From Marmoricola sp. (lineage in GTDB: Bacteria > Actinomycetota > Actinomycetes > Propionibacteriales > Nocardioidaceae): a DNA stretch of 64,000 nt. The notes beneath the pieces are model-generated. The model ran no database searches, was not told the DNA's origin, and saw only the letters and a list, made by a program, of their open reading frames with translations. Below are positions 45,264 to 63,533 of this stretch, piece after piece. Made by a program: the position numbers and the translations under genes. The number at the start of each line of letters is the position of its first letter. The first letter of the stretch is position 1. The DNA lies in NCBI GenBank assembly GCA_025964795.1, contig JAOPYC010000101.1, positions 1-64,000 of the forward strand, in the 5' to 3' direction.

Positions 45264-45326
45264 GTCCACCTCCGTGCGCTCGCCTGATCGGCACCATGCC
45301 AGAACCGGACGTTAGCGCACCCGGAC

Positions 45327-47791: not shown

Positions 47792-50275
47792 ATGACCGAT
47801 CTACCGCTGGTGCTGGCCGGTCCGATCCTGCGACGCGTCGACGCGAAGCGGGTGTGCGTGTGGATGGCCCTGAGCAAGCCCGGGGACGTGGCGGTCACGG
47901 TGTTCTCGGGCCGGGCCACGTCGACCGGCGCCGGCACCGCCGACAAGCCGAGCATCGGTACCCAGAGCCGCGCCACCCGCCCGTTCGGCGCCCACCTGCA
48001 CGCGGTCACGGTCGACGTCGAGTGCGCCGGGCTGGCACCGCTGACGCGGCACTCCTACGACGTCGTGGTCACCGCCGCCGGGCCGACGCAGGGGCTGAAG
48101 TCCCTCGGCCTGCTGAAGGACGGCACCGGCACCCCGAAGCCACTGGCCCTCGGCTACGGCCCCGACCTGCTGCCGGGCTTCGTCACCCCGGCCTCCGCGA
48201 TCGAGGACCTGCGCCTCGCGCACACGTCCTGCCGCAAGTCCAACGGCCCTGGCCCGGACGCGCTGGCCTGGCTGGACGACCGGGTCCAGGACGGCCTCTC
48301 CGACCTCGCCAAGGCGCCGCAACAGCTGTTCCTCACCGGTGACCAGATCTACGCCGACGACGTCGGCGGGGTGCTGCTCCCGCTGCTCTCGTCCCTGGCC
48401 CAGGACATCATCGGCACCGAGCAGCTGCCGGTCGGCGGGGCGAACCTCCCGGCGACGTACGAGCGCTTCCCCGCGCTGCGGCGGCAGGCCGTCGTCCGCA
48501 AGCTCGGGCGGCTGACCACCACGGACGGGCACAACCACCTGCTGACCTACGGCGAGTTCGTGGCGATGTACTGCGCCGCCTTCAGCCCCACAGTCTGGCA
48601 GGGCCGCACCCTGACGGCGCCGGCGGACCTGTTCGTCCCGCCACCCGCCGACGCGGGGCTGACCTTCGCCACCGCCTGGGAGGACGCGTACGACGGCAGC
48701 ACCACCGAGTGGAGGTCGCGCAAGGACCAGGCCGGTCGCTGCCACCTCGACGACACCACCGACGAGGCCAGGCTCGTGGAGACCTGGCGGGACGCGGTGC
48801 CGAAGGTGGCCCGGGCCCTGGCCAACGTGCCGACCTACATGATCCTCGACGACCACGAGATCACCGACGACTGGAACATCTCCGACCGCTGGCGCGGCCG
48901 CGTCGTCAGTGCCCCGTTCGGCCGGTCCATCCTGCGCAACGGCCTGATGGCCTACCTCGTGTTCCAGGGCTGGGGCAACGACCCGCTGAAGTTCCTGCAC
49001 AACTCCGTGGTCGACGCCAACGGCAACCCGGTCGTCGTGCCGGAGGCCGAGCGCGACCCCAACGACAAGGTGCTCGACGTCATCGGCGAGGTCGCCGCCG
49101 GAGTCGCGGCACCGACGTCCGCGAACCTCGACAAGCTCGACGTCCTGCTCGGTCTCGACAAGCCGATCAGCGTGCCGAAGGTGCAGTTCAGCTATGAGGT
49201 GCCCGGCCCGAAGTTCACGGTGCGCGTCCTCGACACCCGCACCCGCCGCACCTACAAGGCCACCGGCAACACACCCCCGCGCCTCCTCGGCAGCAGCCTG
49301 GACGCCCAGGTGCCCAAGGGCCCGTTCACCGACGGGCGCGAGCTGCTGGTCGTCATCTCCGCCGTACCCGTGCTCTTTCCACAGATCTTCGAGTCCGTGC
49401 TGCAGCCGGTCGCGGCGCTCGCGTTCGACCTGAAGACCCACCTGGCCGGGCGCGAGGACGACACCGTGCCCGGCAACGTCACCGGGCTGGTCGGCACCGA
49501 GCAGCGCGACGTCGAGGGCTGGCGCAGCGACGAGGAGCACCACGAGGCCGTCCTCGCCCGGCTCGGCACCTACCGCCGGGTGGTGGTGCTGTCGGGAGAC
49601 GTGCACTTCGCGAGCACGCTGCAGATGGACTACTGGGGCAAGGACGACGACGTCCTCGACTCGCGCATCGTGCAGTGCACCTCGTCGGCCGCGCGCAACC
49701 AGCCCGACGAGGGCATGCGTGGACTGCTCCGCACCCTGCGCATCGGGCAGCAGCTCCTGCGCGGCGTCCCGTGCGAGCGGCTCGGGTGGACCGCCGAGAA
49801 CGGCGTGGTGCTCCCCGCGGGCGCCTCGATCCGGCCCGGCCGGCGAGCGCGCCTGCGCCGCAAGCCCACCGTGCTCCCTGCCAACGGCTGGCCCGCCGGC
49901 ACCACGGTGAACAAGCCGCCCGACTGGCGCTGGCGCGTCGAGGTGGTCCGCGACGACCGCGCGAAGACGGCGCTGCCCGCCGGAGCTCCCGACATCCCGC
50001 TCGTCACCTGGAACGCGGGCGACAAGGTCGCGTCGTACGCCGTCATCGCGGGCCAGCACCAGCAGGTCACGCTGGCGCCGAAGGACCCGGTGCGGCTGAT
50101 GGTGTTCCGCAACAACCTGGGGCTGGTGTCCTTCGCGACCGACGGCAGCGACTTCCGGGTCTCGCACACGCTGCTCTCCAGCGCCGACGACCAGACCGGT
50201 GACGAGTTCACGCAGCACACCGCCCGGTTCGCGCCCTCGCCGGCGCCGGTCGCACCGGTCCTCAGGAGCGTCTGA
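47792..50275 (+). CDS. PhoD-like metallophosphatase-family protein, first gene of the large five-gene module
   Basis: 827 aa. A PhoD-like calcineurin phosphoesterase core is recognisable: FLTGDQIYADDVGG (metal Asp/Tyr), YMILDDHEITDDWN (DDHE) and VVVLSGDVHFAST (GDVH). The N-terminal 120 residues look like the Ig-like domain that precedes PhoD domains (GPILRRVDAKRVCVWMALSKPG). The C-terminal 150 residues are an extra domain without a recognised family. Unlike secreted PhoD enzymes there is no Tat or Sec signal peptide, so it should act in the cytoplasm or be exported by another route. The stop overlaps the next ATG (TGATG), fixing it as part of the downstream operon. Confidence 0.85.
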   Translation: MTDLPLVLAGPILRRVDAKRVCVWMALSKPGDVAVTVFSGRATSTGAGTADKPSIGTQSRATRPFGAHLHAVTVDVECAGLAPLTRHSYDVVVTAAGPTQGLKSLGLLKDGTGTPKPLALGYGPDLLPGFVTPASAIEDLRLAHTSCRKSNGPGPDALAWLDDRVQDGLSDLAKAPQQLFLTGDQIYADDVGGVLLPLLSSLAQDIIGTEQLPVGGANLPATYERFPALRRQAVVRKLGRLTTTDGHNHLLTYGEFVAMYCAAFSPTVWQGRTLTAPADLFVPPPADAGLTFATAWEDAYDGSTTEWRSRKDQAGRCHLDDTTDEARLVETWRDAVPKVARALANVPTYMILDDHEITDDWNISDRWRGRVVSAPFGRSILRNGLMAYLVFQGWGNDPLKFLHNSVVDANGNPVVVPEAERDPNDKVLDVIGEVAAGVAAPTSANLDKLDVLLGLDKPISVPKVQFSYEVPGPKFTVRVLDTRTRRTYKATGNTPPRLLGSSLDAQVPKGPFTDGRELLVVISAVPVLFPQIFESVLQPVAALAFDLKTHLAGREDDTVPGNVTGLVGTEQRDVEGWRSDEEHHEAVLARLGTYRRVVVLSGDVHFASTLQMDYWGKDDDVLDSRIVQCTSSAARNQPDEGMRGLLRTLRIGQQLLRGVPCERLGWTAENGVVLPAGASIRPGRRARLRRKPTVLPANGWPAGTTVNKPPDWRWRVEVVRDDRAKTALPAGAPDIPLVTWNAGDKVASYAVIAGQHQQVTLAPKDPVRLMVFRNNLGLVSFATDGSDFRVSHTLLSSADDQTGDEFTQHTARFAPSPAPVAPVLRSV

Positions 50276-53200
50276 TGCCCGAGGAAGAGAAGAAGAAGAA
50301 GAACGTCTTCCAGAAGATCGCGGGGTTCTTCAAGGACGTCGTGGACTGGGTGGAGGAGACCTTCAGCGACCCGGCGATCGCCACGGAGGTCCGCGAGGAC
50401 CTCGGGATGAACACCGACAACCCGGCGACGCCGAAGGCGACCGACCCGGCCGTCCGGCAGAAGATCGACGACTTCCTCGGCAAGGAGGACGTCGACAAGG
50501 CGGCCCTGCTGGCCACCGTGGCCGAGATCAAGGCGCTGGCCGACACGATCATGACCTTCGCGGACGCGGTGAAGGCCGACGGGGTGAGCGCGGCGGACGT
50601 CTTCTGGCTGATCCTCAAGGTGTGGGGCGCCGACTCGTTGCGGTTGCGCAACCCCAGCGCCTACGCCGTGTGCGTGCTCGCCGGGGTGATCCTCGAGGAC
50701 GACGAGCTGCTGCCCCAGCTGGACCCGGCGCCGGTGACCCGGCTGCTCAAGGGCGAGACGACCGGCGCCGACGCCGACGCGCTGGTGGACCGCCTCTCCG
50801 CCGCGAGCGGCGCCCTCGTGGTGGTCCTGGACCAGATGGTCACCTCGATCGGCGGCTCCATCGACGCGATGTACGGCTGGGACCCCGAGCCCGGCTCCGA
50901 CGTCGACGCCTCGGTCGCCGCCTCGCGCGCGTTGACGGTGAAGTTCCGCATCGGCGGACCCGTCGACCCGGTCCTCACCCTGATCCCGGTCACGTCCGGT
51001 GACGGCGGGCCGGGACTGCTGGTCAGCATCGGGGCGCACCTGCTGATCGAGCACGACACGGGGGACACGGTCTACACGACCGACATCGGCGCCAACGGCG
51101 CGTTCAGCCTCTTCTTCCGCTTCTCCACCCACGATCCCGGCTTCCGCGTGCTCGGTCCCGGGGTCCCGTCCCTCGGCATCTCGGTCGCGCCCAAGGTCGA
51201 GGAGGGCAACCCGTCGCTCGTGCTGGGGACCACCGACGGGACCCGGCTCGAGGTCGGCGCCTTCTCCTTCGGGGTCGAGCTGGGCGCCGACCACGCCGGC
51301 TTCCGGACCAACCTGCACAAGGGCAAGCTGGTCATCTCCCTCGGTGACGGCGACGGGTTCCTCTCGAAGCTGCCGGGCGGCAAGGTCGAGGTGCCGTTCG
51401 AGCTCGGGCTGATCGCCGACACCGCCCACGGCGTCCGCTTCGACGGTGGCACCGGGCTGAAGGTCGACCTGCCGGTCGCGGCGTCGCTGTTCGGGGTCTT
51501 CACCGTGCAGTTCATCGCCCTCGAGCTGAAGCTGGCCGGCGACCCCTCCCTGGAGATCCGAGGGGGCTTCTCACTGGGGCTGGGCCCGTTCCAGGCCTCG
51601 ATCGACCAGCTCGGCACGGCGCTCGACCTCGCCGCCGTCGCCAAGGGCGTCGACGACATCAGCGACCTCGTGACCTTCCTGCCCCCCAAGGGGATCGGCC
51701 TGGCCCTCGACATCGGGCCCGTCAAGGGGGGTGGCTACCTCTTCATCGATGCCGAGAAGGGCGAGTACGCCGGCGCGCTGGAGCTGAAGATCTTCGCCTT
51801 CAGCATCAAGGCCATCGCCCTGGTCACCACCAAGCGCCCCGACGGCTCGGAGGGCTGGTCGCTGCTGATCTTCGTCTTCGGGCAGTTCAAGGTGCACATC
51901 GCGTTCGGCATCTTCTGGACCGGCCTGGGCGGGATGATCGGGCTGCACCACCGGGCCGACCTCGACGCGCTCACAGCGGGCATGAAGACCGGTGCCTTGG
52001 ACGACGTGCTCTTCCCCGACGACCCGGTGGCGAACGCGGCCCGGATCATCAACCGCTACAAGCAGCTCTTCCCGGTCGAGCCCGACAGCCTGCTGCTCGG
52101 GCCGATGCTGGAGCTGTCCTTCTCGGAGCCGCCGATCGTCTTCGTCCGGCTCGGTCTGATCTTCGAGATCCGCAACGCCCTCGGGGGTGACAAGCCCGCC
52201 GAGCTGACCAAGGTGATCCTGCTGGGCCAGCTGCTCGTGCAGCTCCCGCCCAAGGACCTGGGTGTCCCGGCGATCGTCAAGCTGCTGGTCGACGTGGTCG
52301 GGTTCTACGACGCGGTCGAGAAGTTCCTGATGATCCGCGCGCGGCTGCGCGACTCGTTCGTCGGCATCGAGGGGTTCGCCAAGCTCGACCTCACCGGGGA
52401 GCTGCTGCTGGCCATGCGCTTCGGCGACGACCCGTCCTTCGTGCTGTCCGCCGGCGGTTTCCACCCGGCGTTCAAGGACGTGCCTCCCGGCGTACCCCTC
52501 CAGCTGGACCGGCTCGCCGTCTCGTTCGGCATCGGCCCGATCAAGCTGCGCAACGAGAACTACTTCGCGATCACCAGCAACAGCGTGCAGACCGGCTGCA
52601 AGATGATGCTCTCGGCCGACATCGACGTGGCGGCCATCGAGGGTCACCTCTCCTTCGACGCGCTGCTCTACCTCTCCCCGAAGTTCCACTTCCTGGTGGG
52701 GCTCGACTTCCAGGTGAAGCTCTCGGCGTTCGGCGAGGACTTCGCCTCGGTCACGGTGAAGCTGTCCCTGGAGGGACCGGGCGAGTGGCACGCCATCGGC
52801 ACCTTCAGCTTCTCCCTGCTCTTCTGGGACGTCGACATCGGCTTCGACGAGAGCTGGGGGCACGCCCCCGCGGTCGAGGCCCCGACCACCAGCGCGATCG
52901 AGATGGTCGAGCGGGAGCTGGGCGACCCCGCCCGCCTGCTGCCCGGGCCACCCGTGGGCGGCAGCTCGCTGGTCACGCTGGCGGACCCTCCCAAGGGCCT
53001 CGCACTCGCGCACCCGCTGGGACTGGTCACGATCGCGCAGAAGGCCGTGCCCTTCGACGTGCAGATCGACCGCATCGGCACGAAGCGGCTCACCGAGGGC
53101 ACCCCGAAGTTCACCATCGACGACGTGCTCGTCGGCGGTGTCAGCACCTCGGGTCGGGAGATGGTCACCGACCACTTCGCGCGCGGCCAGTTCATGGCGC

Positions 53201-53646
53201 TCACCGAGCAGCAGAAGCTCGAGGGCCGGTCCTTCGAGACCTTCACCAGCGGGGTGCAGATCGGCACCACCGACTACACCGTTCCCACGGCCGGGACCGC
53301 GGTGAAGGCGGACTACGAGGTCGAGATCCTGGAGCCCGAGCCCGTGTTGAACCTGCACTGGAAGGTCGTCTCCCGGTTCACCGAGGTGCTCGACTCCGGA
53401 ACAGCCGTCACCCTCTCGGCGTACGGCGCGGCCGCGGGCTCGGCGAGGGCGACCTCCGCCGCGCTGCACGCCGAGGCGACCGGCCGGGCCACCGTCCGGC
53501 AGGCGCCGATGGCCGTCGTCGACCCGGGGAGCCTGCTCGAGCAGGTGACGGTGATCAACGGTCCCGCCTCGTCCGAGGCCATCGCCTCGCAGGCCGCCTC
53601 GGTCAGCGGGGGGCTCGTGGTCGAGGCCTACGAGGTGGCGCGATGA
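50275..53646 (+). CDS. Giant beta-rich protein (DUF6603-like), module gene 2
   Basis: 1123 aa. It starts with a Lys-rich stretch (PEEEKKKKNVFQKIAGFFKD). An acidic helical region follows to about residue 210. Then comes a very long stretch (about 220-880) of alternating hydrophobic segments such as GVELGADHAGFRTNLHKGKL, GGFSLGLGPFQASIDQLG, LIFVFGQFKVHIAFGIFWTG and FHFLVGLDFQVKLSAFGEDF. This pattern suggests repeated amphipathic beta strands. It resembles what I remember as DUF6603 proteins, but that is not certain. No signal peptide or single clear membrane helix. Overlaps the genes on both sides (TGATG, ATGA), so it is made stoichiometrically with them. Confidence 0.85.
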   Translation: MPEEEKKKKNVFQKIAGFFKDVVDWVEETFSDPAIATEVREDLGMNTDNPATPKATDPAVRQKIDDFLGKEDVDKAALLATVAEIKALADTIMTFADAVKADGVSAADVFWLILKVWGADSLRLRNPSAYAVCVLAGVILEDDELLPQLDPAPVTRLLKGETTGADADALVDRLSAASGALVVVLDQMVTSIGGSIDAMYGWDPEPGSDVDASVAASRALTVKFRIGGPVDPVLTLIPVTSGDGGPGLLVSIGAHLLIEHDTGDTVYTTDIGANGAFSLFFRFSTHDPGFRVLGPGVPSLGISVAPKVEEGNPSLVLGTTDGTRLEVGAFSFGVELGADHAGFRTNLHKGKLVISLGDGDGFLSKLPGGKVEVPFELGLIADTAHGVRFDGGTGLKVDLPVAASLFGVFTVQFIALELKLAGDPSLEIRGGFSLGLGPFQASIDQLGTALDLAAVAKGVDDISDLVTFLPPKGIGLALDIGPVKGGGYLFIDAEKGEYAGALELKIFAFSIKAIALVTTKRPDGSEGWSLLIFVFGQFKVHIAFGIFWTGLGGMIGLHHRADLDALTAGMKTGALDDVLFPDDPVANAARIINRYKQLFPVEPDSLLLGPMLELSFSEPPIVFVRLGLIFEIRNALGGDKPAELTKVILLGQLLVQLPPKDLGVPAIVKLLVDVVGFYDAVEKFLMIRARLRDSFVGIEGFAKLDLTGELLLAMRFGDDPSFVLSAGGFHPAFKDVPPGVPLQLDRLAVSFGIGPIKLRNENYFAITSNSVQTGCKMMLSADIDVAAIEGHLSFDALLYLSPKFHFLVGLDFQVKLSAFGEDFASVTVKLSLEGPGEWHAIGTFSFSLLFWDVDIGFDESWGHAPAVEAPTTSAIEMVERELGDPARLLPGPPVGGSSLVTLADPPKGLALAHPLGLVTIAQKAVPFDVQIDRIGTKRLTEGTPKFTIDDVLVGGVSTSGREMVTDHFARGQFMALTEQQKLEGRSFETFTSGVQIGTTDYTVPTAGTAVKADYEVEILEPEPVLNLHWKVVSRFTEVLDSGTAVTLSAYGAAAGSARATSAALHAEATGRATVRQAPMAVVDPGSLLEQVTVINGPASSEAIASQAASVSGGLVVEAYEVAR

Positions 53647-56600
53647 CCGACACCGTCTACCGCTTCCTGCCATGGTCCCGACGCGGACTGGCGGCCGCGA
53701 TCCCGCCCGGCGCCGACGGTGCGCCGATCCCGGCCCGCGCCACGGTCGACATCCAGGTCGTCGTCGGAGGCGCCGGCACCGTGCCCACGTCGACGACGCT
53801 GAACGGCCCGGGCGACGTGATCGGCCTGGACCCGACCGTCATTGTCCGCACCATCCCCCGGGCCGGCTCCACCAACGTCGAGCCGAACTACCTGGCCGCC
53901 GTCGACTTCGACCAGCCCGAGCTGCCGTGGCTGTTCACGCCGAGCGGCGTACCGGCGTCGGGCCACCTCAAGCCCTGGCTGGTGCTGATCGTGGTCCGCG
54001 ACCGTCCGGGGGTCTCCGTCGACGTACGGCCCGGGACCCCGCTCCCCCAGCTGACCATCGCGGACCACGCGGCCGCCGAGCTCCCCGACCTCGCGGACTC
54101 GTGGGCCTGGGCGCACGTCCAGCTCCTCGACGAGGACTCCGGCCCGACGCCCACGGCGGTGGGGCAGGCGCTGGTCGACCACCCGGACCGCAACGTCTCG
54201 CGACTGGTCTGTCCGCGGCGGCTCGACCGCGACACCCGCTGGATCGCCTGCCTGGTGCCGGCCCTCGACGCCGGCGTGGTCCGCGGCTTCGGCGGGACCC
54301 CGCCTGCCGGCGACCTGGAGCCGGCCTGGACGACGCCCGGACCGGACTCGATCACGCTCCCGGTCTACTACCACTGGCAGTTCCAGACCGGGGCCCAGGG
54401 CGACTTCGAGTCACTGGCCCGGCGGCTCAAGCCCTACGAGGCGAGCGCCCGCATCGGCCGGGTCAAGATGCACGTCGGGGACGCGTCCCCCTTCGTCGAC
54501 CTCCCCCTGGACGACCCCGGCCGCTTCCTCGACATGGACGGCGCCCTCCAGGCGCCGGCGGTGGCCCGGACCAGCGCCACGCCGCCGGTGCCCGAGCCGT
54601 CGCTCGCGGAGGTGCCGGCCGCGCTGGTGACCGGCCTCCAGGACGTCTCCCGGGTCCTGGCCGACGCCGCCGACGGCACGCTCGACGGACAGGCCGCGGG
54701 AGACGGCGACGCCCTCGGGCCGCCGGTCTACGACGGCGCCCACGTGCGGCGTACGACGGTCACCGAGCAGGACGCCACCTGGTTCCGCGAGATCAACACC
54801 GACCCCCGCGGCCGGGTGGCCGCCGGGCTGGGGGCCGAGGTGATGCGGAAGTTCCAGGAGGACGTGATGGAGGCCGCCTGGCAGCAGGTGGGCGACGTGC
54901 TGACCCTCGAAGCGGCCCTCTCCCGGGCCCGGCTCTCCCTGGAGGCGGTGCTGCGGTTCCGGGACCGACACCTCGTCCCGCTGACGGAGGGGCGGTTCCT
55001 GCAGGTCACGGCCCCCTTGGCCGATCACACCCTGCTCGCGGGCCAGAGCCTTCCGCACGCGATCGACCCCACGTCCTTCCCGACCCGCACCACGGACGCC
55101 GCCATGCGTCGCTACACCGCGGCGACCGGGCGGGTGCTCTCCGGCGTCGCCCGGCGCTCGGGCGACGGTGCCGGGAGGACCGCCGCCCGCCGGGCCGGCG
55201 AGCAGCTGGTGTCCTCGCTCGCGGCCGGGCGCGCCGACGTCGACGCCACCCGGTTCCCGGTGCTGGCGATCGACGGCCTCACCGGCTCGATGCCGACCGC
55301 CGAGGCGGACGGCCAGGTCAGCCTGGACAGGTTCCGGGTCGCGCTGAGGCTCGACAAGCAGAGCGCGGCCGCCCTGTCGCGCGCCTCCCGCGACCTCACC
55401 ACCTCGCCGGCGGTCCCGGCCGCCGACCTGGTCAGGCTCCGGGGCGACCTGCGCCAGACGGGGATCCTCACCGAGGTGCACGTGCGCACGGCGAGGGAGG
55501 CCTCCGTGGAGCAGCTGAGCACCCGGGAGAGCTCGGTCGAGCCCGGCGCACACCTGGAGCTGACCGACGTGCTCACCGCCTCCTCGACCCAGGTCCTCGA
55601 CTCCGTGCTGACCAGCGCGGCCGAACGTCCCGCGGACGCCGGCTTCCTGATCGAGACCGGGCCCACGATGAAGTTCCACTCGCTGGCCCTGCAGTCCGGC
55701 GGGCGGCTCGTCGTCTCGTCGAGACCAGGCACCCCCAACGTCCCGCTCGCGACCCTCGACGTGCGGCTCAGCGGGGACGCCCGGCACATCGGGGACCTCG
55801 TCGGGTCCCTGCCCAACGGGGCCTTCTCGCCGGTGGTGACCAGGCGAGGTGGAGCGGCCGCGCCGCGCGCCCAGCTCGAGCTGGTCCCCGGCGCCGCCCA
55901 CGGTGAGGTCGTCCTGCGTCCGCCGGGCGGCGTCGTCGTCGTGGACCCCCCGGCCGGCGCCTCCGTCGGCACGACGGTGACGATGCCGCCGCTCGTCAAG
56001 GACTCCGCCACCATCGCCCGCTACGAGTCGGCCGTGGGCGAGTTGACCCGGCGTACGGCGCTGGCGGTCGACCCGCTGGTGCCGCAGCTGGTGCCGTTCG
56101 CGATCACCGGGGCGGTCGCGGCCACCCAGCACCGGGTCGACCCCCTGGTGGTCCACCCGGCGCGGCTGGACACCATGGTCAGCGTCGCCGGCCATCCCCT
56201 GTCGGCGATCCTGGCCGACCCCTCCCTGGTGGCGGGCTGGCGGCTGCCCCGGCTCTTCGACCGGGTGATGGCCTTCCCTCAGCTCGACCTCCCGGCGTAC
56301 TCCTACCTGGCGGCCTACGACCGGACCCGGTTCTGCCCCGGCGTCGACGAGGTCCCGCCGGACTCGATCACCCTGCTGGAGACCAACCCCCGGTTCATCG
56401 CCGGGTTCATGGGGGGCCTCAACCACGAGACCAACAAGGAGCTGCTCTGGCGGAGCTATCCGACCGACGGGCGGGGCACTCCGTGGCGGAAGTTCTGGAG
56501 ACGCACCGACGACCGGCCCGACATCTTCGACATCCACACGTGGGGGAACCACGGCGGCCACGACGAGCTCGCCTGGCAGACCTCCGACCCCCGCGGCAAC

Positions 56601-57074
56601 CTGGTGCTGCTGCTGCGCGGCGACCTGCTGCGGCGCTACCCCAACACGATGGCCGTCGCGCTCAGGGCGGTCCGCGTCAACGGCGTCCAGAAGCCGAGCG
56701 ACAACCTGGCCGACCTGCGCACCCCGGTGTTCGCCGGGCTCTTCGACCCCGACGTCTCGTTCTTCGGGTTCCCGCTCGTCAGCGACGACCTCACCCAGGG
56801 CGAGGGCTGGTTCTTCGGCCTGATGGAGCCGGTGACCGAGCCCCGCTTCGGCTTCGACGAGACCGTCGGCCGCGAGACGGCCACGGCCACCAGCTGGAAC
56901 GACGTCGCGTGGCCGGACCTCGGCGTCGCGCCGGCCGGGATGCTCCGGGTGACCCAGCTCGCAGCCCTCGGCCTGCCCCCGTCGGTCGGCCAGGCCGACG
57001 GGATCGCCGCGGCGCTGTTCCAACGGCCGTTCAAGCTGCTGGTCCACGCCCGCCACCTCGTGGAGGGGATCTGA
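53643..57074 (+). CDS. Large protein of unknown function, module gene 3 (1143 aa)
   Basis: No characterised family recognised. The N-terminal third has structured segments (WLFTPSGVPASGHLKPWLVL; AWAHVQLLDEDSGPTP; WIACLVPALDAGVVRGFGG; VYYHWQFQTGAQGDFESLARRL). The C-terminal quarter is strikingly conserved-looking: ETNPRFIAGFMGGLNHETNK, ELLWRSYPTDGRGTPWRKFW, then LVLLLRGDLLRRYPNTMAVA. I recall similar phrases from other uncharacterised bacterial proteins, but cannot verify it. No signal peptide or membrane helix. ATGA overlap with gene 2 and a one-base gap to gene 4. Confidence 0.85.
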   Translation: MTDTVYRFLPWSRRGLAAAIPPGADGAPIPARATVDIQVVVGGAGTVPTSTTLNGPGDVIGLDPTVIVRTIPRAGSTNVEPNYLAAVDFDQPELPWLFTPSGVPASGHLKPWLVLIVVRDRPGVSVDVRPGTPLPQLTIADHAAAELPDLADSWAWAHVQLLDEDSGPTPTAVGQALVDHPDRNVSRLVCPRRLDRDTRWIACLVPALDAGVVRGFGGTPPAGDLEPAWTTPGPDSITLPVYYHWQFQTGAQGDFESLARRLKPYEASARIGRVKMHVGDASPFVDLPLDDPGRFLDMDGALQAPAVARTSATPPVPEPSLAEVPAALVTGLQDVSRVLADAADGTLDGQAAGDGDALGPPVYDGAHVRRTTVTEQDATWFREINTDPRGRVAAGLGAEVMRKFQEDVMEAAWQQVGDVLTLEAALSRARLSLEAVLRFRDRHLVPLTEGRFLQVTAPLADHTLLAGQSLPHAIDPTSFPTRTTDAAMRRYTAATGRVLSGVARRSGDGAGRTAARRAGEQLVSSLAAGRADVDATRFPVLAIDGLTGSMPTAEADGQVSLDRFRVALRLDKQSAAALSRASRDLTTSPAVPAADLVRLRGDLRQTGILTEVHVRTAREASVEQLSTRESSVEPGAHLELTDVLTASSTQVLDSVLTSAAERPADAGFLIETGPTMKFHSLALQSGGRLVVSSRPGTPNVPLATLDVRLSGDARHIGDLVGSLPNGAFSPVVTRRGGAAAPRAQLELVPGAAHGEVVLRPPGGVVVVDPPAGASVGTTVTMPPLVKDSATIARYESAVGELTRRTALAVDPLVPQLVPFAITGAVAATQHRVDPLVVHPARLDTMVSVAGHPLSAILADPSLVAGWRLPRLFDRVMAFPQLDLPAYSYLAAYDRTRFCPGVDEVPPDSITLLETNPRFIAGFMGGLNHETNKELLWRSYPTDGRGTPWRKFWRRTDDRPDIFDIHTWGNHGGHDELAWQTSDPRGNLVLLLRGDLLRRYPNTMAVALRAVRVNGVQKPSDNLADLRTPVFAGLFDPDVSFFGFPLVSDDLTQGEGWFFGLMEPVTEPRFGFDETVGRETATATSWNDVAWPDLGVAPAGMLRVTQLAALGLPPSVGQADGIAAALFQRPFKLLVHARHLVEGI

Positions 57075-57075
57075 C

Positions 57076-60000
57076 GTGCCCGGACCCGACCTCGTCGCCG
57101 ACCTCCAGGCCATCGGCCGCGCCCGCGTGGACGTGGCGGAGCACGAGCGCACCATCGAGGAGACCAGGATCGAGCGCGCCGGCCTCGCCGAGCGGCGGGA
57201 CCAGCTGCTCGCCGCCGGCCAGGTCGACAGGGCCGAGAGCCTCGCCCAGAGGATCGAGGCGGCGGAGTCGCGGCTGGGGGCCCTGCAGTCCGGCCGGGCC
57301 GACCTGCTCGGGCAGATCACCGACCTCTCCGACGGGCTGCTGACGGTCTTCACCCCCGAGTCCCTCACCGCGACCCTCGACGGCACCCGTCCGGTCGCGA
57401 TGCTGCCCGTCCGGATCGAGACCCGCTTCGAGACGGCGACCAGGCTCCGCGTGCGGGTCTTCCCCGACCAGCTGCACGTCGACGCGCACGACCCCGCCCT
57501 CACGGCGGACGAGTCGGAGGGTGCGCAGTGGTACTGGAACCAGCGCTGGGCCGCCGGCCTCGACGACCTCGACGCCGGCCGAGTCGCGTGGACCGGTCTC
57601 ACCCAGCGCTTCCGGCCCGGCCGGGCGGCGTACCTCGTCCGGGCGATGACCCCGACGAACGCGCCCGCCGACGGCGCCCCCGACTTCCCGGCGCCGCCGG
57701 CCCGTGAGTCGACCTGGAACCGGGCCCCGCTCGCGACCGCCCTGCCGGACCGGTTCTGCGTCGTCGGCCTGGCCCGGCAGGACGGAGCGTGGGTCGAGCG
57801 GTTCCGGCAGTGGGGCAGCGCGGTCCCGGACACCCTCGCCGTCGGGATCGACCCCCACGACCTGCAGGAGGCGCCCGAGAAGGGCGGCCTGCCGGTCGAC
57901 GAGGGCACGAGGTGGCTGCGGGAGCCCGACCGGGCCCGGCAGGTGGGCGCGCTGATCGAGGTCGACCACCCGTCCCTGGCGCAGGGTGTCGAGCGGCTGG
58001 TCGTCCTCGGGGTCGACTGGACCCAGCAGCCCGACCAGGCGGCCGCGTCGCTGGAGACGCTGCTGGAGGCGCAACGCTGGGCCGGCCACCTCGGCTTCGT
58101 GCCCCAGGGGACGCCGACCAACAACACCTCCGACACCCGCACCGGCTACACCACCGACCCGGCCGCGGAGGCTGCTGCGCTCGACCCGTCGGCCACGTCC
58201 GCCGGAGGTGACGAATGGACGGCCGGGCCCCGCCTGGCCGCCGCCCTGGGCCTCGACCCGTCGACGTTCGACGGGCTCCCCGGCGCCACCACCAGGGAGC
58301 ACGCCTGGGCCTCGGCGCTGACCGACACGCTCTGGCGCGGCACGGCCGGCTACTACCTGACCGACCTGCTCGACCCGCTGGCCAAGGACGACCCCCAGGT
58401 CGACGCCGACCTGCGCGAGTTCGCCCGGTCCAGCCTGTTCGCGGCCGGGCCACTGCCCACCCTTCGCGTCGGCGCCCAGCCGTACGGCGTGCTGCCGGTC
58501 GTGTCCTCGCGGTCCTACGAGCCCGGCGCCGGCCGGGCCGAGCAGCTCGTGCACCGGGTGGCCACGCTGATGCGCCAGATCACCAGCCCGGCCGTCGCCG
58601 ACGTGCCGCACCTGCGCCGCGCTGGCGAGGACCAGGACGTCGACACCGTCCTGCTCAAGCTCCTGCAGCGCACGCCAGTGCCGTGGACCTTCCGGTTCCG
58701 GCCGATCACCGGACCGTTGGAGCGCAAGAACATGAGCGTGCGCTGGGACCTCACCAACGCCTGGCAGCGCACCTGGACCTCGGCGATGTGGGTCGGTCTC
58801 GGGGTCTTCACGAGCACCCGGCTCAACGAGCTGACGCACGGCAAGGACAGTCCGCTCCCGGTCCCGCTCGTCGCCAGGCCCGGGGGGGAGAACCCCACGG
58901 CCTACCTCGGCGAGATCGCCGAGCTGATGAAGGACGTCAACGGCCGCAAGGCCCTCAACCTCCGGGAGGACTCCATCGCCCTGCTCGAGGCGATGGCCGC
59001 GCACAGCGGCGTCCTCGAGCTCGACCGCTGCGCGCTGCACACCACCCGCGACGGCCTGGGTCTGTCGGCGGCGCAGCTCGCCACCCTGCCCGCGCTGGCG
59101 AACCTGTCCATCGCGACGCCGGACTCGGTCCGGGTGGAGCAGGCGCCGACCGTGCCCGTCGCGTCGCTCGACTTCACGTCGGGCCGGCAGCTGGCCGACG
59201 CTGTGGTGCCCCAGGTCTCGTCGAAGCCGCTGGGCGAGTTCGTGACCACCGAGTTCGCCGACCGGTTCGGTGACCTCGCCGCGCTGCTCGGGGCGCCGAC
59301 CGATCCGTTCTACTGGCTGGGGCACCACCAGGTCGCCCTGCAGGAGCTGGCCGCGGCACCGCCCGACCAGCTCGAGTGGACCTTCCGTGGCTACCTCGAC
59401 CTCTTCTCCACGCGGCTCGACGCCTGGTTCACCGGGCTCTCGACGCGCCGGCTGACCGACCATCGCGAGGCTGCCCCGACCGGCGTACACCTGGGGTGCT
59501 GGGGGTTCGTCGAGGACCTGCACCGCGACATCGGGGCCGGCGCCGAGAGCCTCGGCTTCGTGCACACCCCGTCGCTCGCCCACGCCGCGAGCACGGCCCT
59601 GCTGCGCAACGGCCGGCTGGCCAACCGCGGCGACGACGGAACGGTGTTCGACCTGCAGGTCACCTCCGACCGCGTACGCCGGGCCCGGTGGCTCCTCGAA
59701 GGGGTCGCCCAGGGACAGCAGCTCGCCGCCCTGCTCGGCTACCGCATCGAGCGCGGGCTGCAGGACGCCGGCCTGGACCTGATGCGCTACCAGATGCCGC
59801 TGCGCCGCACGGCTCCGCTGCGCGGCCCGGACGTGGCACCCGACGAGTCGGTGGAGGTGCTGGCCGCCCGCGACGTGGTCGACGGCGTGGCGCTGCTCGA
59901 CCGCTGGCGCACCGACCCGTCCGGGGTGCTCGGCGCCGTGGCGAGCCAGGCCGGCCTGGCCAGCCTGCCGGGCACCGACGCCAGCCGGCTGCGGGCAGTG

Positions 60001-61710
60001 ATCGACGCCGTCCACGACACCTACGACGCAGTGAGCGACCTGCTCGTGGCCGAGAGCGTCCACCAGGCCGCGATCGGCAACCTGGACCGCTCGGGCGCCT
60101 CGCTGTCGGCCCACGATCGTCACGGCAGCGTGACCGAGCTCGACTACGTCGGGTCTCCCCGCTCCGGTCACACGATCGGGCACCGGGTGGTGGTCGCGCT
60201 CCAGGACCAGGCCCTGGCGACCGGCTGGAAGCGCGACGCGCGGGGCGTGGCCGAGCCGCTGCTCGACGCCTGGCTCTCCCGGCTCCTGGGCCCGCCGTCG
60301 CAGTGGCAGTTCGGGGCGCTGCTGCACGCCCCCGACGGGACCGCCACCGTGCTGAGCCCGATCACGCTGGCCGACCTCGGCCTGGGCCCGCTGTCGGTCG
60401 CCCTCGCGACGCAGAAGACCGGCGCGGGCCGACCGAGCGAGCTGGAGCAGCGGATCGGACTGGCCTTCGCCGCCCAGGCGGTCGCCGACCCCGCGGCCGA
60501 GCTCGAGCTGCTCGCCGAGGCCCCGTCGGGCAGCGCCGCCGGCGGACTGGCGCTCCTGGACACGCTGGGCGACTGGGCGGCGAAGGTGACCGGCGCCTCC
60601 CCGCTGGCCCCGGGTGACCTCGCCTCGGGTGCCGACCTCAGCGGGGCCCTCGCGGCACCCGGCACCGTCGACGTCACCGAGCTGGCCGCCCGGGTCGCGG
60701 GCACCCGGACGAGGCTCACCGCCGTGGTGACGGCCCTCCGCAAGGCCTCGACCCCGAAGCAGCGCAGCAAGGCCCTCCTCGACGCGGTCGCCTTCGACGG
60801 CCCCGACGCGCTGCCGGTCGTGCCCGAGAACCACGCGCAGGCTGCCGAGGAGCTCGAGATGCAGGCGGCCGAGGTGGTGGCCCGACTCACCCTGCTCGAC
60901 GCAGCCGTGGACAAGGCGGTGGCCGAGCCCCTGCCCGAGGGCGACCAGCAGGTCGCCGCCCGGCACACCGCACTGCTGCGCTCCCTGCTCGGGGCGCCCC
61001 AGCCGGTGCTGCCGCGGCTGACGCTGGCCGACAGCGCACCCCTGGCGGCCTCGCTCGCCGACCGGGCCGCACTCCTCGGCGGTGACCCGGTCGCCCCGGC
61101 CGCCTGGCTGCAGCGCGCGGCGCTGGTCCGGCCGGAGCTCGACGCGTTCGCCGGCCTGCTGCTGCACGCCGAGGCCGCCGGGCAGGACGTCCCGGCCCAG
61201 CTGCAGATCGCCCAGCTCCCCCATCGTCCGGGGGTGCCCTGGACCGCCCTCCCCCACGGCGACGCCGGCCCGCCGCCACACGGCTCCGTCGCGTTCGCGG
61301 TGCACTCCTGGAAGCCCCTCGACGCGGGCAAGGCGTTCGCCGGCCTGGTGGTGGACGGCTGGACCGAGACCCTGCCCGCCACGACGGAGACCACGGCCGT
61401 CACCTTCCACTACGACGCTCCCGGCGCCCGGGCGCCGCAGTCGGTGCTGCTCGCCGTGCACCCGGCGGTGCGGCCGGAGAAGTGGAGCTTCGACCTGCTG
61501 CTCGAGACGGTCAACGAGGCCGCCGACCTGGCCCAGCTGCGGATGCTCTCCTCGGCCGAGCTCGCGCCGATGGGGTCGTTCCTGCCGGCGCTCTACCTGC
61601 CGGACGACTACACCCACGACGTCCCGTCGGTGTCGCTGACCGAGCTGCTGAAGTCCGCGCAGGCCGCCGGCTTCGCGGTGCTGCACGCCGACGTCCTCGG
61701 GAAGGCGTGA
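57076..61710 (+). CDS. Very large protein of unknown function, module gene 4 (1544 aa)
   Basis: GTG start one base after the previous stop. Residues about 15-85 form a coiled coil (EHERTIEETRIERAGLAERR, AESLAQRIEAAESRLGALQS). The next region opens VAMLPVRIETRFETATRLRV, RVFPDQLHVDAHDPALTADE, WYWNQRWAAGLDDLDAGRVA and LPDRFCVVGLARQDG, suggesting a discrete N-terminal domain. The central 900 residues are Leu/Ala-rich and helical in look, and the C-terminus returns to beta-type sequence (AVTFHYDAPGARAPQSVLLA; WSFDLLLETVNEAADLAQLR). No enzymatic motif recognised. Its size and coupling suggest a structural or scaffold component. Confidence 0.85.
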   Translation: MPGPDLVADLQAIGRARVDVAEHERTIEETRIERAGLAERRDQLLAAGQVDRAESLAQRIEAAESRLGALQSGRADLLGQITDLSDGLLTVFTPESLTATLDGTRPVAMLPVRIETRFETATRLRVRVFPDQLHVDAHDPALTADESEGAQWYWNQRWAAGLDDLDAGRVAWTGLTQRFRPGRAAYLVRAMTPTNAPADGAPDFPAPPARESTWNRAPLATALPDRFCVVGLARQDGAWVERFRQWGSAVPDTLAVGIDPHDLQEAPEKGGLPVDEGTRWLREPDRARQVGALIEVDHPSLAQGVERLVVLGVDWTQQPDQAAASLETLLEAQRWAGHLGFVPQGTPTNNTSDTRTGYTTDPAAEAAALDPSATSAGGDEWTAGPRLAAALGLDPSTFDGLPGATTREHAWASALTDTLWRGTAGYYLTDLLDPLAKDDPQVDADLREFARSSLFAAGPLPTLRVGAQPYGVLPVVSSRSYEPGAGRAEQLVHRVATLMRQITSPAVADVPHLRRAGEDQDVDTVLLKLLQRTPVPWTFRFRPITGPLERKNMSVRWDLTNAWQRTWTSAMWVGLGVFTSTRLNELTHGKDSPLPVPLVARPGGENPTAYLGEIAELMKDVNGRKALNLREDSIALLEAMAAHSGVLELDRCALHTTRDGLGLSAAQLATLPALANLSIATPDSVRVEQAPTVPVASLDFTSGRQLADAVVPQVSSKPLGEFVTTEFADRFGDLAALLGAPTDPFYWLGHHQVALQELAAAPPDQLEWTFRGYLDLFSTRLDAWFTGLSTRRLTDHREAAPTGVHLGCWGFVEDLHRDIGAGAESLGFVHTPSLAHAASTALLRNGRLANRGDDGTVFDLQVTSDRVRRARWLLEGVAQGQQLAALLGYRIERGLQDAGLDLMRYQMPLRRTAPLRGPDVAPDESVEVLAARDVVDGVALLDRWRTDPSGVLGAVASQAGLASLPGTDASRLRAVIDAVHDTYDAVSDLLVAESVHQAAIGNLDRSGASLSAHDRHGSVTELDYVGSPRSGHTIGHRVVVALQDQALATGWKRDARGVAEPLLDAWLSRLLGPPSQWQFGALLHAPDGTATVLSPITLADLGLGPLSVALATQKTGAGRPSELEQRIGLAFAAQAVADPAAELELLAEAPSGSAAGGLALLDTLGDWAAKVTGASPLAPGDLASGADLSGALAAPGTVDVTELAARVAGTRTRLTAVVTALRKASTPKQRSKALLDAVAFDGPDALPVVPENHAQAAEELEMQAAEVVARLTLLDAAVDKAVAEPLPEGDQQVAARHTALLRSLLGAPQPVLPRLTLADSAPLAASLADRAALLGGDPVAPAAWLQRAALVRPELDAFAGLLLHAEAAGQDVPAQLQIAQLPHRPGVPWTALPHGDAGPPPHGSVAFAVHSWKPLDAGKAFAGLVVDGWTETLPATTETTAVTFHYDAPGARAPQSVLLAVHPAVRPEKWSFDLLLETVNEAADLAQLRMLSSAELAPMGSFLPALYLPDDYTHDVPSVSLTELLKSAQAAGFAVLHADVLGKA

Positions 61711-61715
61711 CGACG

Positions 61716-63533
61716 ATGGCCCTCTACGACCTCGCGCACCTGGTCTCCCTCGAGACGGAGCTCCGCATCAGGCCGACCGTCGTCAGCTACTCCCGGCTGG
61801 AGCCGGTGAACCTCAGCTCCGGTGACCTGACCCCCGGGCTCGAGGTCCGGCTCGCCGACCCGCTGTGGATGATCGGTCGCCAGTGGCAGTTCGAGGAGCT
61901 CCGCGGCGAGGACGGCGGCTCCCCGGTCGTGGCCGAGGTGAACGCCGAGCGTGGGCCGGTCACCCGCTTCCACCCCGGGTCGCCACTCGGCACCCCCGAC
62001 TCCGCGGGTGAGTCCGTCGACGTGCCCCCGGCCACGCCGGTCGAGGTCGCCGTCGAGGCCGAGACCCCCGACGTGCACCCGGAGCGGGTGCGCTCCCAGC
62101 TCGGGCTGCACCTGCTCCGCCTGACGCGCGCGCTGGGGCTGCCCACGACGATCCTGGCCAAGGTGGAGGCGGCGTACGTCGCGGAGTGGCCGTTCGCAGG
62201 CGACCTCGACGCGGAGGTCGACCCGGTGGGCGCCTCGCGGCGGCGGGTGCTGACGGGGCGGGTGCCCGACGGCGCGGCCGCGGTGGCCGCGCTCCGGGCG
62301 TCGGGCGGGGACCTGCCGTCGTCGGTGAGCACGGCCGCTGGCACGGCCGCTCGTCGTACGGCGGTGAAGGAGGTGCTCGCCACCTGGCGGACCTGGGCCG
62401 AGCAGCTCGTCGCCGTGCCCACCGGGTCGTCGTGGGACCCGCACCGGCTGGAGTACTCCTTCGCCGTCCAGGCCACGCTCTCCACGGGCGACGTGGTGCT
62501 CCGCTCCGACGAGTACGTCGGCGGCACGGTCGACTGGTACTCCTTCGACGCCGCGGCCTCCCCCGCCCTCGGCGCCCCCGCCCAGCCGGTCCCGCCCGAG
62601 GTGGTCAGGCAGACCCTGGTGCCCACGCCGGTGAAGTACCCCGGGATGCCCAACGACCGGCTCTGGGCGTTCGAGGACTCCAACGTCTACCTCGGCGGCC
62701 TCAAGGCGGGGTCGACCGACCTGGCCCGGCTCGCCCTCGTCGAGTTCTCGCTCGTCTTCGGCAACGACTGGTTCCTGCTCCCCTTCCAGATGGAGTACGG
62801 CGACGTGGCCCGGGTGCACAGCCTCCGGGTGGTCGACACCTTCGGGGCGAGCATCGACGTGGGACCGTCCCGTGAGGTCGGCCGCCCCGGCTGGACCGTC
62901 TTCCAGAACACCCCGGTCGACGACGGGTCGGCGCTGGCGGACGTGTTCGTGCTGCCGGCCACGCTGCGTCACGCCCTGGAGGGTCCGCCGCTCGAGGAGG
63001 TCGCGCTGTTCCGCGACGAGATGGCCAACCTGGTCTGGGGGGTCGAGCGCGTCGTACAGGGGCCCAGCGGCGAGCCGGTCAAGCGCGGCCTGGTCGAGTC
63101 GAGGTCGCTGCGCCAGCAGCTGCCCGGCGACCTCGACGACGCGGCGATCGTCTACCGGCTGATGACGCCGGTGCCCGACCACTGGATCCCGTTCGTCTCG
63201 GTGCCGCTCGCGGGCGTCCCGCTGAACCGGTTCGCGACCGAGCTCGAGCGCCGCCCGATGGTGCGGTTCCTGCCCGGCGGGACGGTCGAGGTGGTGCACC
63301 CGCACGGCGTGCTGCTGCGCACGTCGCCCGAGGGGGACGTGGCCGCCGACCGGCTCCGGATCGCCGAGCAGGAGGTGCCGCGGGACGGCGTCGTGCTCAC
63401 CCGCCGCTACCAGCTCGCGCGCACCACCGACGGCGGCACGGTGCTGTGGATCGGCCGCCGCAAGGAGGCCGGCCAGGGCGAGGGCTCCTCGGGCCTGAAG
63501 TTCGACACCGCGCTGCCACCCGACGGGCTCTGA
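61716..63533 (+). CDS. Protein of unknown function, module gene 5 (605 aa)
   Basis: Start at ATG 61716; an in-frame GTG at 61707 overlapping the previous stop (GTGA) would add three residues. Distinctive segments are VSLETELRIRPTVVSYSRLE, LADPLWMIGRQWQFEELRGE followed by DGGSPVVAE, LWAFEDSNVYLGGLKAGSTD, FGNDWFLLPFQMEYGDVARV and TRRYQLARTTDGGTVLWIGR. No known domain identified by eye, no signal peptide, mixed alpha/beta. Last gene of the tight operon; the next gene begins 39 bp later but is a regulator with its own spacing. Confidence 0.85.
   Translation: MALYDLAHLVSLETELRIRPTVVSYSRLEPVNLSSGDLTPGLEVRLADPLWMIGRQWQFEELRGEDGGSPVVAEVNAERGPVTRFHPGSPLGTPDSAGESVDVPPATPVEVAVEAETPDVHPERVRSQLGLHLLRLTRALGLPTTILAKVEAAYVAEWPFAGDLDAEVDPVGASRRRVLTGRVPDGAAAVAALRASGGDLPSSVSTAAGTAARRTAVKEVLATWRTWAEQLVAVPTGSSWDPHRLEYSFAVQATLSTGDVVLRSDEYVGGTVDWYSFDAAASPALGAPAQPVPPEVVRQTLVPTPVKYPGMPNDRLWAFEDSNVYLGGLKAGSTDLARLALVEFSLVFGNDWFLLPFQMEYGDVARVHSLRVVDTFGASIDVGPSREVGRPGWTVFQNTPVDDGSALADVFVLPATLRHALEGPPLEEVALFRDEMANLVWGVERVVQGPSGEPVKRGLVESRSLRQQLPGDLDDAAIVYRLMTPVPDHWIPFVSVPLAGVPLNRFATELERRPMVRFLPGGTVEVVHPHGVLLRTSPEGDVAADRLRIAEQEVPRDGVVLTRRYQLARTTDGGTVLWIGRRKEAGQGEGSSGLKFDTALPPDGL

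What the first reader, a model, noticed from the sequence alone, without database searches (positions are those of the whole stretch)
47792..63533. Five-gene, 15.7-kb tightly coupled module of giant uncharacterised proteins with a PhoD-like phosphatase
Seen: five consecutive genes with 1-4 bp overlaps or a 1-base gap. They encode an 827-aa PhoD-like metallophosphatase without signal peptide, a 1123-aa beta-rich protein, and proteins of 1143, 1544 and 605 aa, none with a recognised domain. About 4,400 of 5,250 residues have no assignable function. Such strict coupling of huge proteins implies a stoichiometric assembly. Recurrent phrases (ELLWRSYPTDGRGTPWRKFW; LADPLWMIGRQWQFEELRGE) look conserved rather than random. 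Inference: a multi-protein machine, polymer-binding or storage particle, or defence/antagonism apparatus, with the phosphatase as enzyme component.
Basis: partly seen in the sequence, partly recalled or inferred. Interest (0 to 1): 0.88.

Follow-up and report, generated by a model that had tools for sequence, protein, structure and literature searches.

The report
Unknown mobile enzyme-carrying protein machine
Four giant proteins, often preceded by an interchangeable enzyme, are encoded side by side in the same order in scattered bacteria and archaea, which points to an undescribed, horizontally spreading protein machine whose job is not yet known.

Summary
The five genes are real, and their co-occurrence is far beyond chance. 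P2-P5 form a fixed four-gene core, in the same order in all 64 loci where all four were called, across 11 labelled phyla including a haloarchaeon, yet P3 is in only 9 of 396 genomes of the window's phylum. P2 is a DUF6603 protein; P3-P5 have no significant Pfam, NCBIfam, PHROGs or PADLOC match. The PhoD-like phosphatase is not the core. It is the commonest occupant (40 of 82 loci) of an exchangeable first slot that elsewhere holds phospholipase D, peptidase M64, Het-C, beta-lactamase-like, DUF2515, ferritin-like or fused alpha/beta-hydrolase proteins, or nothing recognised. A crude scan saw almost no signal peptides. A few P5 relatives carry PA14, F5/8C, Kelch or lamin-tail extensions. P2 is predicted to be a very large amphipathic beta-sheet resembling porins, LptD and ApoB; P5 gave no fold match. 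A phage or contractile-tail origin was not upheld. Best reading: a cytosol-built complex that carries a swappable enzyme to a surface or membrane. The architecture is shown; the function is inferred.

The parts
47792..50275 (+). P1: PhoD-like metallophosphoesterase with N-terminal DUF7800; exchangeable first-slot enzyme
   Evidence: PhoD 26.2 bits and DUF7800 25.5 bits, both under the cut-off of 27; 35 of 39 aligned members (window included) match PhoD at E<=1e-3; GDQxYADD-type motif in 38, DDHE-type in 37 and GDVH-type in 24 of 40; profile matches B. subtilis PhoD 2yeq, E 7.3e-4
50275..53646 (+). P2: DUF6603 protein, giant amphipathic beta-sheet; likely partner of the first-slot enzyme
   Evidence: PF20248 E 8.7e-98; AlphaFold model with strands through residues 195-861; fold searches; amphipathicity
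51490..53211 (+). DUF6603 domain inside P2
53643..57074 (+). P3: core protein, no known domain; middle part tolerates insertions, with FG-GAP repeats in some relatives
   Evidence: alignments; FG-GAP_3 in 9 of 12 long relatives
56439..56498 (+). conserved P3 phrase ELLWRSYPTDGRGTPWRKFW
   Evidence: E933, P940, F951, W952 invariant, L934, L935, W936, R937, T946 nearly so, in 48 rows
57076..61710 (+). P4: core protein, largest, no known domain; fused to P5 in one relative (L049)
   Evidence: fusion
61716..63533 (+). P5: core protein; no fold match detected; C-terminal adhesion-type extensions in a few relatives
   Evidence: model pLDDT 82.3, pTM 0.79; no PDB or viral match at E<=1e-3; PA14 in 3 and F5/8C in 3 of 62 rows
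61851..61910 (+). conserved P5 phrase LADPLWMIGRQWQFEELRGE
   Evidence: D48, P49, R55, Q56, Q58, E61 invariant in 62 rows

Best explanation
SHOWN: P2-P5 are a conserved, horizontally spread core operon, and the gene before P2 is exchangeable (PhoD-like here, other enzymes elsewhere). INFERRED: the proteins form one complex made in the cytoplasm. P2 (DUF6603), an unusually large amphipathic beta-sheet, engages lipid or membrane and carries the enzyme encoded next to it. P3, P4 and P5 form an invariant scaffold, and optional lectin-like or propeller extensions on P5 and P3 let it bind surfaces. The complex would bring a swappable enzyme to a membrane or cell surface outside the producing cell, released by lysis or an unknown route, most likely in microbial antagonism.
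For: Fixed order in 64 of 64 loci where P2-P5 were all called; of the other 23 of 87, 20 stop at a contig edge, L049 has a P4/P5 fusion, L046 has a P4 that my caller missed, and L068 is broken. In 396 phylum genomes P3 is in 9, P2 in 12 and P5 in 10; all 9 with P3 have P2 and 8 of 9 have P5. Enzyme/DUF6603 pairing: in Nitrospira defluvii a PLD gene overlaps one DUF6603 gene and an M64 peptidase gene overlaps a second, upstream of one P3-P4-P5 set; an alpha/beta hydrolase shares one open frame with DUF6603 in L071. Unrelated first-slot families: PhoD, PLD, M64, Het-C, beta-lactamase2, DUF2515, ferritin-like; in the sister type also protein glutaminase. Adhesion-type extensions: PA14, F5/8C, Kelch, LTD, TIG on P5, FG-GAP on P3, PG_binding_1 on 5 of 39 P1. 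DUF6603 strands: mean face difference 2.74 against a shuffled mean of 1.10, maximum 1.72. Patchy spread: phylum labels need 23 changes on the P3 tree, least possible 10. PhoD-family enzymes include a phospholipase D and a phosphodiesterase proposed to act on teichoic acid (PMC4223295, abstract and passages); Het-C is a predicted phospholipase or nuclease toxin domain (PMC3482391, passages).
Against: No experiment and no structure of the complex. No secretion, lysis or immunity-like gene was seen to recur beside the module, although flanks beyond P1-P5 were mostly only 3-4 kb. The five proteins diverge at broadly similar rates (spread within a pair 2-13 points in 17 close pairs; P1 present in 12 of them; 72, 74, 69, 68, 71% for window against L008), so nothing shows the fast evolution expected in a toxin or recognition arms race. 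In 17 of 34 assessable loci without PhoD I recognised no coupled first-slot gene, so the core must do something without it. Some occupants (ferritin-like L110, WD40 L095) are not obvious effectors. Adhesion-type extensions are rare on P5, so extracellular action rests on a few cases. Amphipathic strands also occur in ordinary soluble beta-sheets.
Confidence: 0.4

Rival explanations
1. An internal lipid- or polymer-handling body: DUF6603 is an ApoB-like lipid-binding belt or lipid conduit, the first-slot enzyme processes lipid or phosphate polymer, and P3-P5 coat the particle.
For: Almost no signal peptides by a hydropathy scan; Foldseek hits of P2 to ApoB100 (E 1.2e-4) and LptD (2.1e-4); DUF6603 core GRAVY 0.48, Phe-rich (8.5%) and Tyr-poor (1.3%), unlike typical outer-membrane barrels as I recall them; 18 of 80 P2 have an internal hydrophobic 19-residue stretch; PhoD, PLD, Het-C and alpha/beta hydrolases can act on lipids.
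Against: M64 peptidase, beta-lactamase-like, ferritin-like and protein-glutaminase occupants do not fit lipid work; adhesion-type extensions and PG_binding_1 suggest an outside surface; patchy spread suggests an accessory function.
Confidence: 0.25
2. An extracellular nutrient-acquisition complex (cellulosome-like): enzymes on an adhesive scaffold break down phosphate esters, lipids or proteins outside the cell.
For: Varied hydrolases; carbohydrate-binding-type extensions in a few P5.
Against: Almost no signal peptides in P1-P5; PhoD is one of many occupants; phosphate-regulation context was not examined.
Confidence: 0.15
3. A derived phage tail or contractile injection system, or effectors loaded by one.
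For: 26 of 37 module-bearing genomes have a sheath-family protein against 36 of 396 in the phylum sample; within that sample DUF6603 carriers show 4 of 12, Fisher P 0.017; in Cellulomonas humilata the module lies 17 kb from a sheath gene, with probable eCIS genes (by eye) starting about 5 kb away.
Against: The 37 genomes were not matched for taxon or size; P3 carriers show 2 of 9, P 0.19; no sheath found in the window's draft genome; 11 of 37 carriers show no sheath; of the 26 with a sheath only two have sheath and DUF6603 within 50 kb on one contig, with other genes between, though many are draft genomes in pieces; no PHROGs match with E below 0.1; no viral fold match for P5 at E<=0.001.
Confidence: 0.07
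4. An intracellular anti-phage or abortive defence system with a swappable effector.
For: Patchy, horizontally mobile, effector-slot design; one TIR-domain gene upstream in L014.
Against: No PADLOC match for P1-P5 at E<=0.1; no NTPase or sensor domain in the window proteins; adhesion-type extensions; the TIR gene is about 250 bases away and its relative L015 has another gene there.
Confidence: 0.1

Closest known systems
DUF6603 (Pfam PF20248)
   Same: P2 is a clear member (E 8.7e-98)
   Different: The family has no known function; no paper in the searched library names it
PhoD family (PF09423; B. subtilis PhoD 2yeq, S. chromofuscus phospholipase D)
   Same: P1 has GDQ-Y-DD, DDHE and GDVH motif regions and a weak profile match
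   Different: Below the Pfam cut-off in the window; no signal peptide seen; sits in an operon with DUF6603
Polymorphic toxin systems (PMC3482391, passages)
   Same: Swappable enzyme against a constant carrier; Het-C shared
   Different: No known trafficking domain in the window proteins, no recurring immunity gene seen, enzyme mostly in a separate gene at the 5' end, the five proteins diverge at similar pace
Extracellular contractile injection systems (PMC8213781, passages)
   Same: Found in bacteria and archaea; particles there are released by lysis, a route that would also suit proteins without signal peptides
   Different: No sheath, tube, baseplate or AAA ATPase family among P1-P5; carriers without detected sheath genes exist
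Outer-membrane beta-barrels / LptD / ApoB100
   Same: Long antiparallel amphipathic strands; VIA best Z 13.7 over 263 residues
   Different: rmsd 11 A; Foldseek TM-score by query length 0.16 or less, by target length 0.34 or less in the 50 rows shown; hosts include Gram-positive bacteria and archaea with no outer membrane (recalled)

Membership tests
DUF6603 (PF20248) | Score over Pfam's cut-off of 27 bits | tested here: met
   328.5 bits
PhoD family (PF09423) | Score over Pfam's cut-off of 27 bits | tested here: inconclusive
   Window protein 26.2 bits, just under; 35 of 39 aligned members match at E<=1e-3
PhoD family (PF09423) | Metal-site motif regions (motif names recalled) | tested here: met
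   GDQxYADD-type 38, DDHE-type 37, GDVH-type 24 of 40; all three in the window protein
PhoD family (PF09423) | Phosphodiesterase or phosphatase activity with Fe and Ca | not testable with these tools
   Needs an assay
Contractile injection system / phage tail | Module proteins match phage protein families | tested here: not met
   No PHROGs match with E below 0.1 for P1-P5
Contractile injection system / phage tail | Sheath gene in the same genome | tested here: not met
   0 in G000, a 92% complete draft; present in 26 of 37 other carriers
Polymorphic toxin system | Variable enzyme against a constant carrier | tested here: met
   First-slot families
Polymorphic toxin system | Known trafficking domain and immunity gene | tested here: inconclusive
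   No trafficking domain in window proteins; no neighbour family shared by more than 11 loci, with short flanks
Anti-phage defence systems in PADLOC-DB 2.0.0 | HMM match | tested here: not met
   0 families at E<=0.1 for all five
Transmembrane beta-barrel (porin/LptD type) | Closed barrel of amphipathic antiparallel strands | tested here: inconclusive
   Strand pattern fits; closure could not be checked, rmsd 11 A
Transmembrane beta-barrel (porin/LptD type) | Signal peptide for export to the outer membrane | tested here: inconclusive
   1 of 80 P2 with a hydrophobic N-terminal stretch, but this is a crude hydropathy scan and some starts are my own guesses

The most novel reading that the evidence does not exclude
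A previously undescribed class of protein-delivery machine shared by bacteria and archaea and not derived from phage tails. A giant membrane-active beta-sheet protein (DUF6603) carries whichever enzyme is encoded beside it onto or through a target membrane, docked on a three-protein scaffold of unrecognised families. At least two sister types exist: type I with P3, P4, P5, and type II with a P3 homologue and a different large partner. Both have exchangeable enzymes.
Probability: 0.22. Interest if true: 0.93.

Novelty: categorically new. Interest (0 to 1): 0.78.

Why it matters
A four-gene core of about 4,400 residues, kept in one order across 11 labelled phyla in two domains while moving between them, must do something useful that needs a fixed set of parts. 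Three of its proteins belong to no family in the libraries searched and the fourth is a DUF. If it is a delivery machine, it would be a new kind beside contractile and secretion systems, with a natural swappable-cargo slot. If it is a lipid-carrying body, it would be a prokaryotic counterpart in kind to lipoprotein particles. Either way the pairing rule (enzyme gene next to DUF6603) makes function directly testable.

Tried and rejected
Homology among P1-P5: profile comparison gave none. The one strong P4/P5 hit aligned window gaps and is best explained by the natural P4-P5 fusion in L049, which was in that alignment. Known families: Pfam, NCBIfam, PHROGs and PADLOC gave only DUF6603 and borderline PhoD/DUF7800. 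PDB by sequence: P3 no match at E<=1; P5 best E 0.067; P2 only designed helical and similar proteins, best E 0.016; P1 2yeq; P4 was not searched. PDB by fold for P5: no Foldseek match at E<=0.001, VIA best Z 4.0 over 64 residues; viral best E 0.019. Absence from these lists does not show a new fold. P3 and P4 were not modelled because only two structure jobs were allowed.

Phage or contractile-system origin: tested and not upheld. The higher count of sheath genes among carriers is unmatched for taxon and genome size, so I do not build on it.

Conserved neighbours outside the module: all-against-all comparison found no family in more than 11 loci. The PLD-like cluster from that search led to the exchangeable first slot.

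Diversifying evolution: the five proteins evolve at broadly similar pace in 17 close pairs, which counts against an arms race and was not what I expected.

Papers: searches for DUF6603 and DUF7800 gave 0 papers. Combined-term searches listed none whose title or abstract start describes this operon; only listings were seen for these. I read passages of PMC3482391, PMC4223295 and PMC8213781, not the whole texts. Preprints and most subscription journals are not held, so an earlier description elsewhere is possible.

My gene caller missed P4 in L046 and P3 in L032; tblastn found them.
Full report
WHAT IS THERE. The window is a stretch of a 4.32-Mb, 204-contig draft genome, 68-76% GC along the window. 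Of its five nearest P3 relatives on the tree three are actinobacterial. Five + strand genes run from 47792 to 63533 with overlaps or gaps of a few bases. P1 (827 aa) is PhoD-like. P2 (1123 aa) is a DUF6603 protein (E 8.7e-98). P3 (1143), P4 (1544) and P5 (605) match nothing significant in Pfam, NCBIfam, PHROGs or PADLOC. A cytochrome P450-reductase fusion ends 117 bases upstream.

IT IS A SYSTEM. Searching the P3 profile against genome contigs gave 187 relatives after a pattern filter, of which the best 80 were kept, so the spread described here is a capped view. With six loci from plasmid and phage records and the window, 87 loci were examined. P2-P5 were all called in 64, and all 64 have them in the same order. 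Of the other 23, 20 stop at a contig edge: 19 by the script, plus L032, whose P3 runs close to the contig end by tblastn. One (L049) has P4 and P5 fused, one (L046) has a P4 found only by tblastn, and one (L068) is broken. Loci were chosen by P3 or P5, so P2 and P4 were not selected for. The same 13 of 72,556 plasmid records appear in the lists for P2, P3, P4 and P5, including haloarchaea, Rhizobium, Paraburkholderia, Nocardia and Gemmatirosa. In 396 genomes of the window's phylum (the window's own included), P3 is in 9, P2 in 12 and P5 in 10. All 9 with P3 have P2, and 8 of 9 have P5; three have P2 without P3 and P5, and two have P5 alone.

IT MOVES. Only 7 of 149 genomes of the same family, the window's own included, carry P3. 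On a tree of 79 P3 rows, 72 rows with phylum labels fall in 11 phyla, and the labels need 23 changes where 10 is the least possible. Rubellimicrobium (Pseudomonadota) lies within a strongly supported, otherwise actinobacterial group that holds the window. That tree used the quick method, some rows have long branches, and more than one change is no proof of transfer. With the P5 query no relative was found in IMG/VR (23 pattern matches, none a relative). One unverified phage record of 50,697 carries P3-P5.

THE FIRST GENE IS EXCHANGEABLE. Of 82 loci with P2, 40 have P1 upstream. Of the 42 others, 8 have P2 within 1.5 kb of a contig edge and 34 can be judged. Among those 34: phospholipase D-like in L054, L074, L083; peptidase M64 in L036 and L084; beta-lactamase2 in L038; DUF2515 in L072 and L079; Het-C in L076; long coupled genes without a family in L057, L058, L080; no coupled gene that I recognised in 17, mostly Betaproteobacteria; and 5 unclear (sorted by reading the listing). 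Only 14 of the upstream genes of those 34 were scanned with Pfam. In L020 the upstream gene is RNase E, a bystander, and L014 has a TIR-domain gene about 250 bases upstream where its relative L015 has another gene. In Polyangium L071, one of the edge cases, an alpha/beta hydrolase shares one open frame with DUF6603. A second Streptomyces wedmorensis copy has a ferritin-like gene in the slot (L110), and L095 a WD40 gene. In Nitrospira defluvii, PLD overlaps a first DUF6603 gene and M64 a second, upstream of one P3-P4-P5 set. That is one locus, but it is the clearest sign that the enzyme pairs with DUF6603. PhoD presence or absence needs at least 9 changes on the P3 tree.

THE PROTEINS. A hydrophobic N-terminal stretch was seen in 2 of 40 P1, 1 of 80 P2 and 0 of 85 P3, 74 P4 and 68 P5. 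This is a hydropathy scan, not a dedicated predictor, and some starts are my own guesses. Internal hydrophobic stretches occur in 18 of 80 P2. Extensions of adhesion type occur: in 62 P5, PA14 in 3, F5/8 type C in 3, Kelch, LTD and TIG in 1 each; in 12 long P3, FG-GAP_3 in 9; in 18 long P4, FG-GAP_3 in 2; in 39 P1, PG_binding_1 in 5. P5 was modelled well (pLDDT 82.3, pTM 0.79), but no solved or viral structure matched at E<=0.001. P2 (pLDDT 77.4, pTM 0.49) is a run of long antiparallel strands from residue 195 to 861, with block pLDDT of 79-96 between 501 and 860. Foldseek's best hits are outer-membrane barrels (SlpA 9.6e-5, LptD 2.1e-4) and ApoB100 (1.2e-4), with low TM-scores. VIA gives porins with Z up to 13.7 over 263 residues at rmsd 11 A. 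Of 27 longer strands tested, 20 have faces differing by more than 1.5 hydropathy units; the mean difference is 2.74 against 1.10 in shuffles, maximum 1.72. Ordinary soluble sheets can be amphipathic too, and I could not check whether the sheet closes into a barrel. A crude reading of composition (Phe-rich, Tyr-poor) leans to a lipid-holding face over a classical porin; that is inference.

A SISTER TYPE. I looked at eight DUF6603 loci outside type I: the three P2-only genomes of the phylum sample, four in Streptomyces klenkii and one in Rugosimonospora africana, whose genome also has type I. All eight carry beside DUF6603 a protein of one family whose N-terminal part is related to P3 (hhalign 97.2%, E 2.8e-11 over 201 columns), and seven of eight a different large protein with no detected relation to P4. 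In front of DUF6603 stand a weak metallo-beta-lactamase match in L092 (below cut-off), a gene without Pfam match in L108 and two protein-glutaminase genes in L111. Streptomyces klenkii has five DUF6603 genes: one of type I and four of this type.

MECHANISM. The safest statement is a mobile core of four proteins that is used with an interchangeable enzyme, probably held by DUF6603. My preferred reading is delivery of that enzyme to a surface or membrane outside the cell, because the enzymes are mostly hydrolases of unrelated kinds, the extensions bind surfaces in other proteins (recalled), and the distribution is that of an accessory trait. An internal lipid or storage body is the main rival. 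Evidence against delivery is given above: no immunity or release gene seen, similar divergence across the five proteins, and many loci without a recognised enzyme.

CONTRACTILE SYSTEMS. Sheath-family genes occur in 26 of 37 carriers but in 36 of 396 phylum genomes. The sets are not matched. Within the phylum sample, DUF6603 carriers show 4 of 12 (Fisher P 0.017) and P3 carriers 2 of 9 (P 0.19). Two carriers have sheath and DUF6603 within 50 kb on one contig, with other genes between. None was found in the window's genome. I do not regard the module as part of such a system.

VERDICT.

Noticed in passing
L092 5511-18378; L093; L094; L105-L108; L111: A sister system: DUF6603 plus a P3-related protein plus, in seven of eight, a different giant protein; two protein-glutaminase genes stand in front in L111, a weak metallo-beta-lactamase match in L092.
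   Followed up: partly
L109 9501-17920 and L036: Nitrospira defluvii has two tandem enzyme/DUF6603 pairs (PLD, then peptidase M64) upstream of one P3-P4-P5 set.
   Followed up: partly
L049 4656-11162: P4 and P5 fused into one 2168-aa frame in a Pyrinomonadaceae genome.
   Followed up: yes
L014 4909-6375: TIR-domain gene about 250 bases upstream of P2 in a Vicinamibacteria genome; its relative L015 has another gene there.
   Followed up: partly
L110 12887-13960: Ferritin-like gene (PF12902) in the first slot of a second Streptomyces wedmorensis module.
   Followed up: partly
window 45431-47674: Cytochrome P450 fused to a ferredoxin-reductase module (747 aa), 117 bases upstream of P1 on the same strand; it could share a transcript.
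   Followed up: partly
window 44238-45269 (-): LacI-family regulator divergent from the P450 gene.
   Followed up: partly
window 63574-64000: A regulator-like reading frame (TetR-like by eye) starts after P5 and runs off the window.
   Followed up: no
L007 (MT835531.1): A record labelled Bacteriophage sp. (unverified, human faeces) carries P3-P5; perhaps a bacterial contig, not checked further.
   Followed up: no
L068: Streptomyces nymphaeiformis copy with broken or missing frames in P3-P5; looks like a decaying module.
   Followed up: no
L099-L100 (Cellulomonas humilata): The module lies 17 kb from a sheath gene, with probable contractile-injection genes (by eye) from about 5 kb away and unrelated genes between.
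   Followed up: partly
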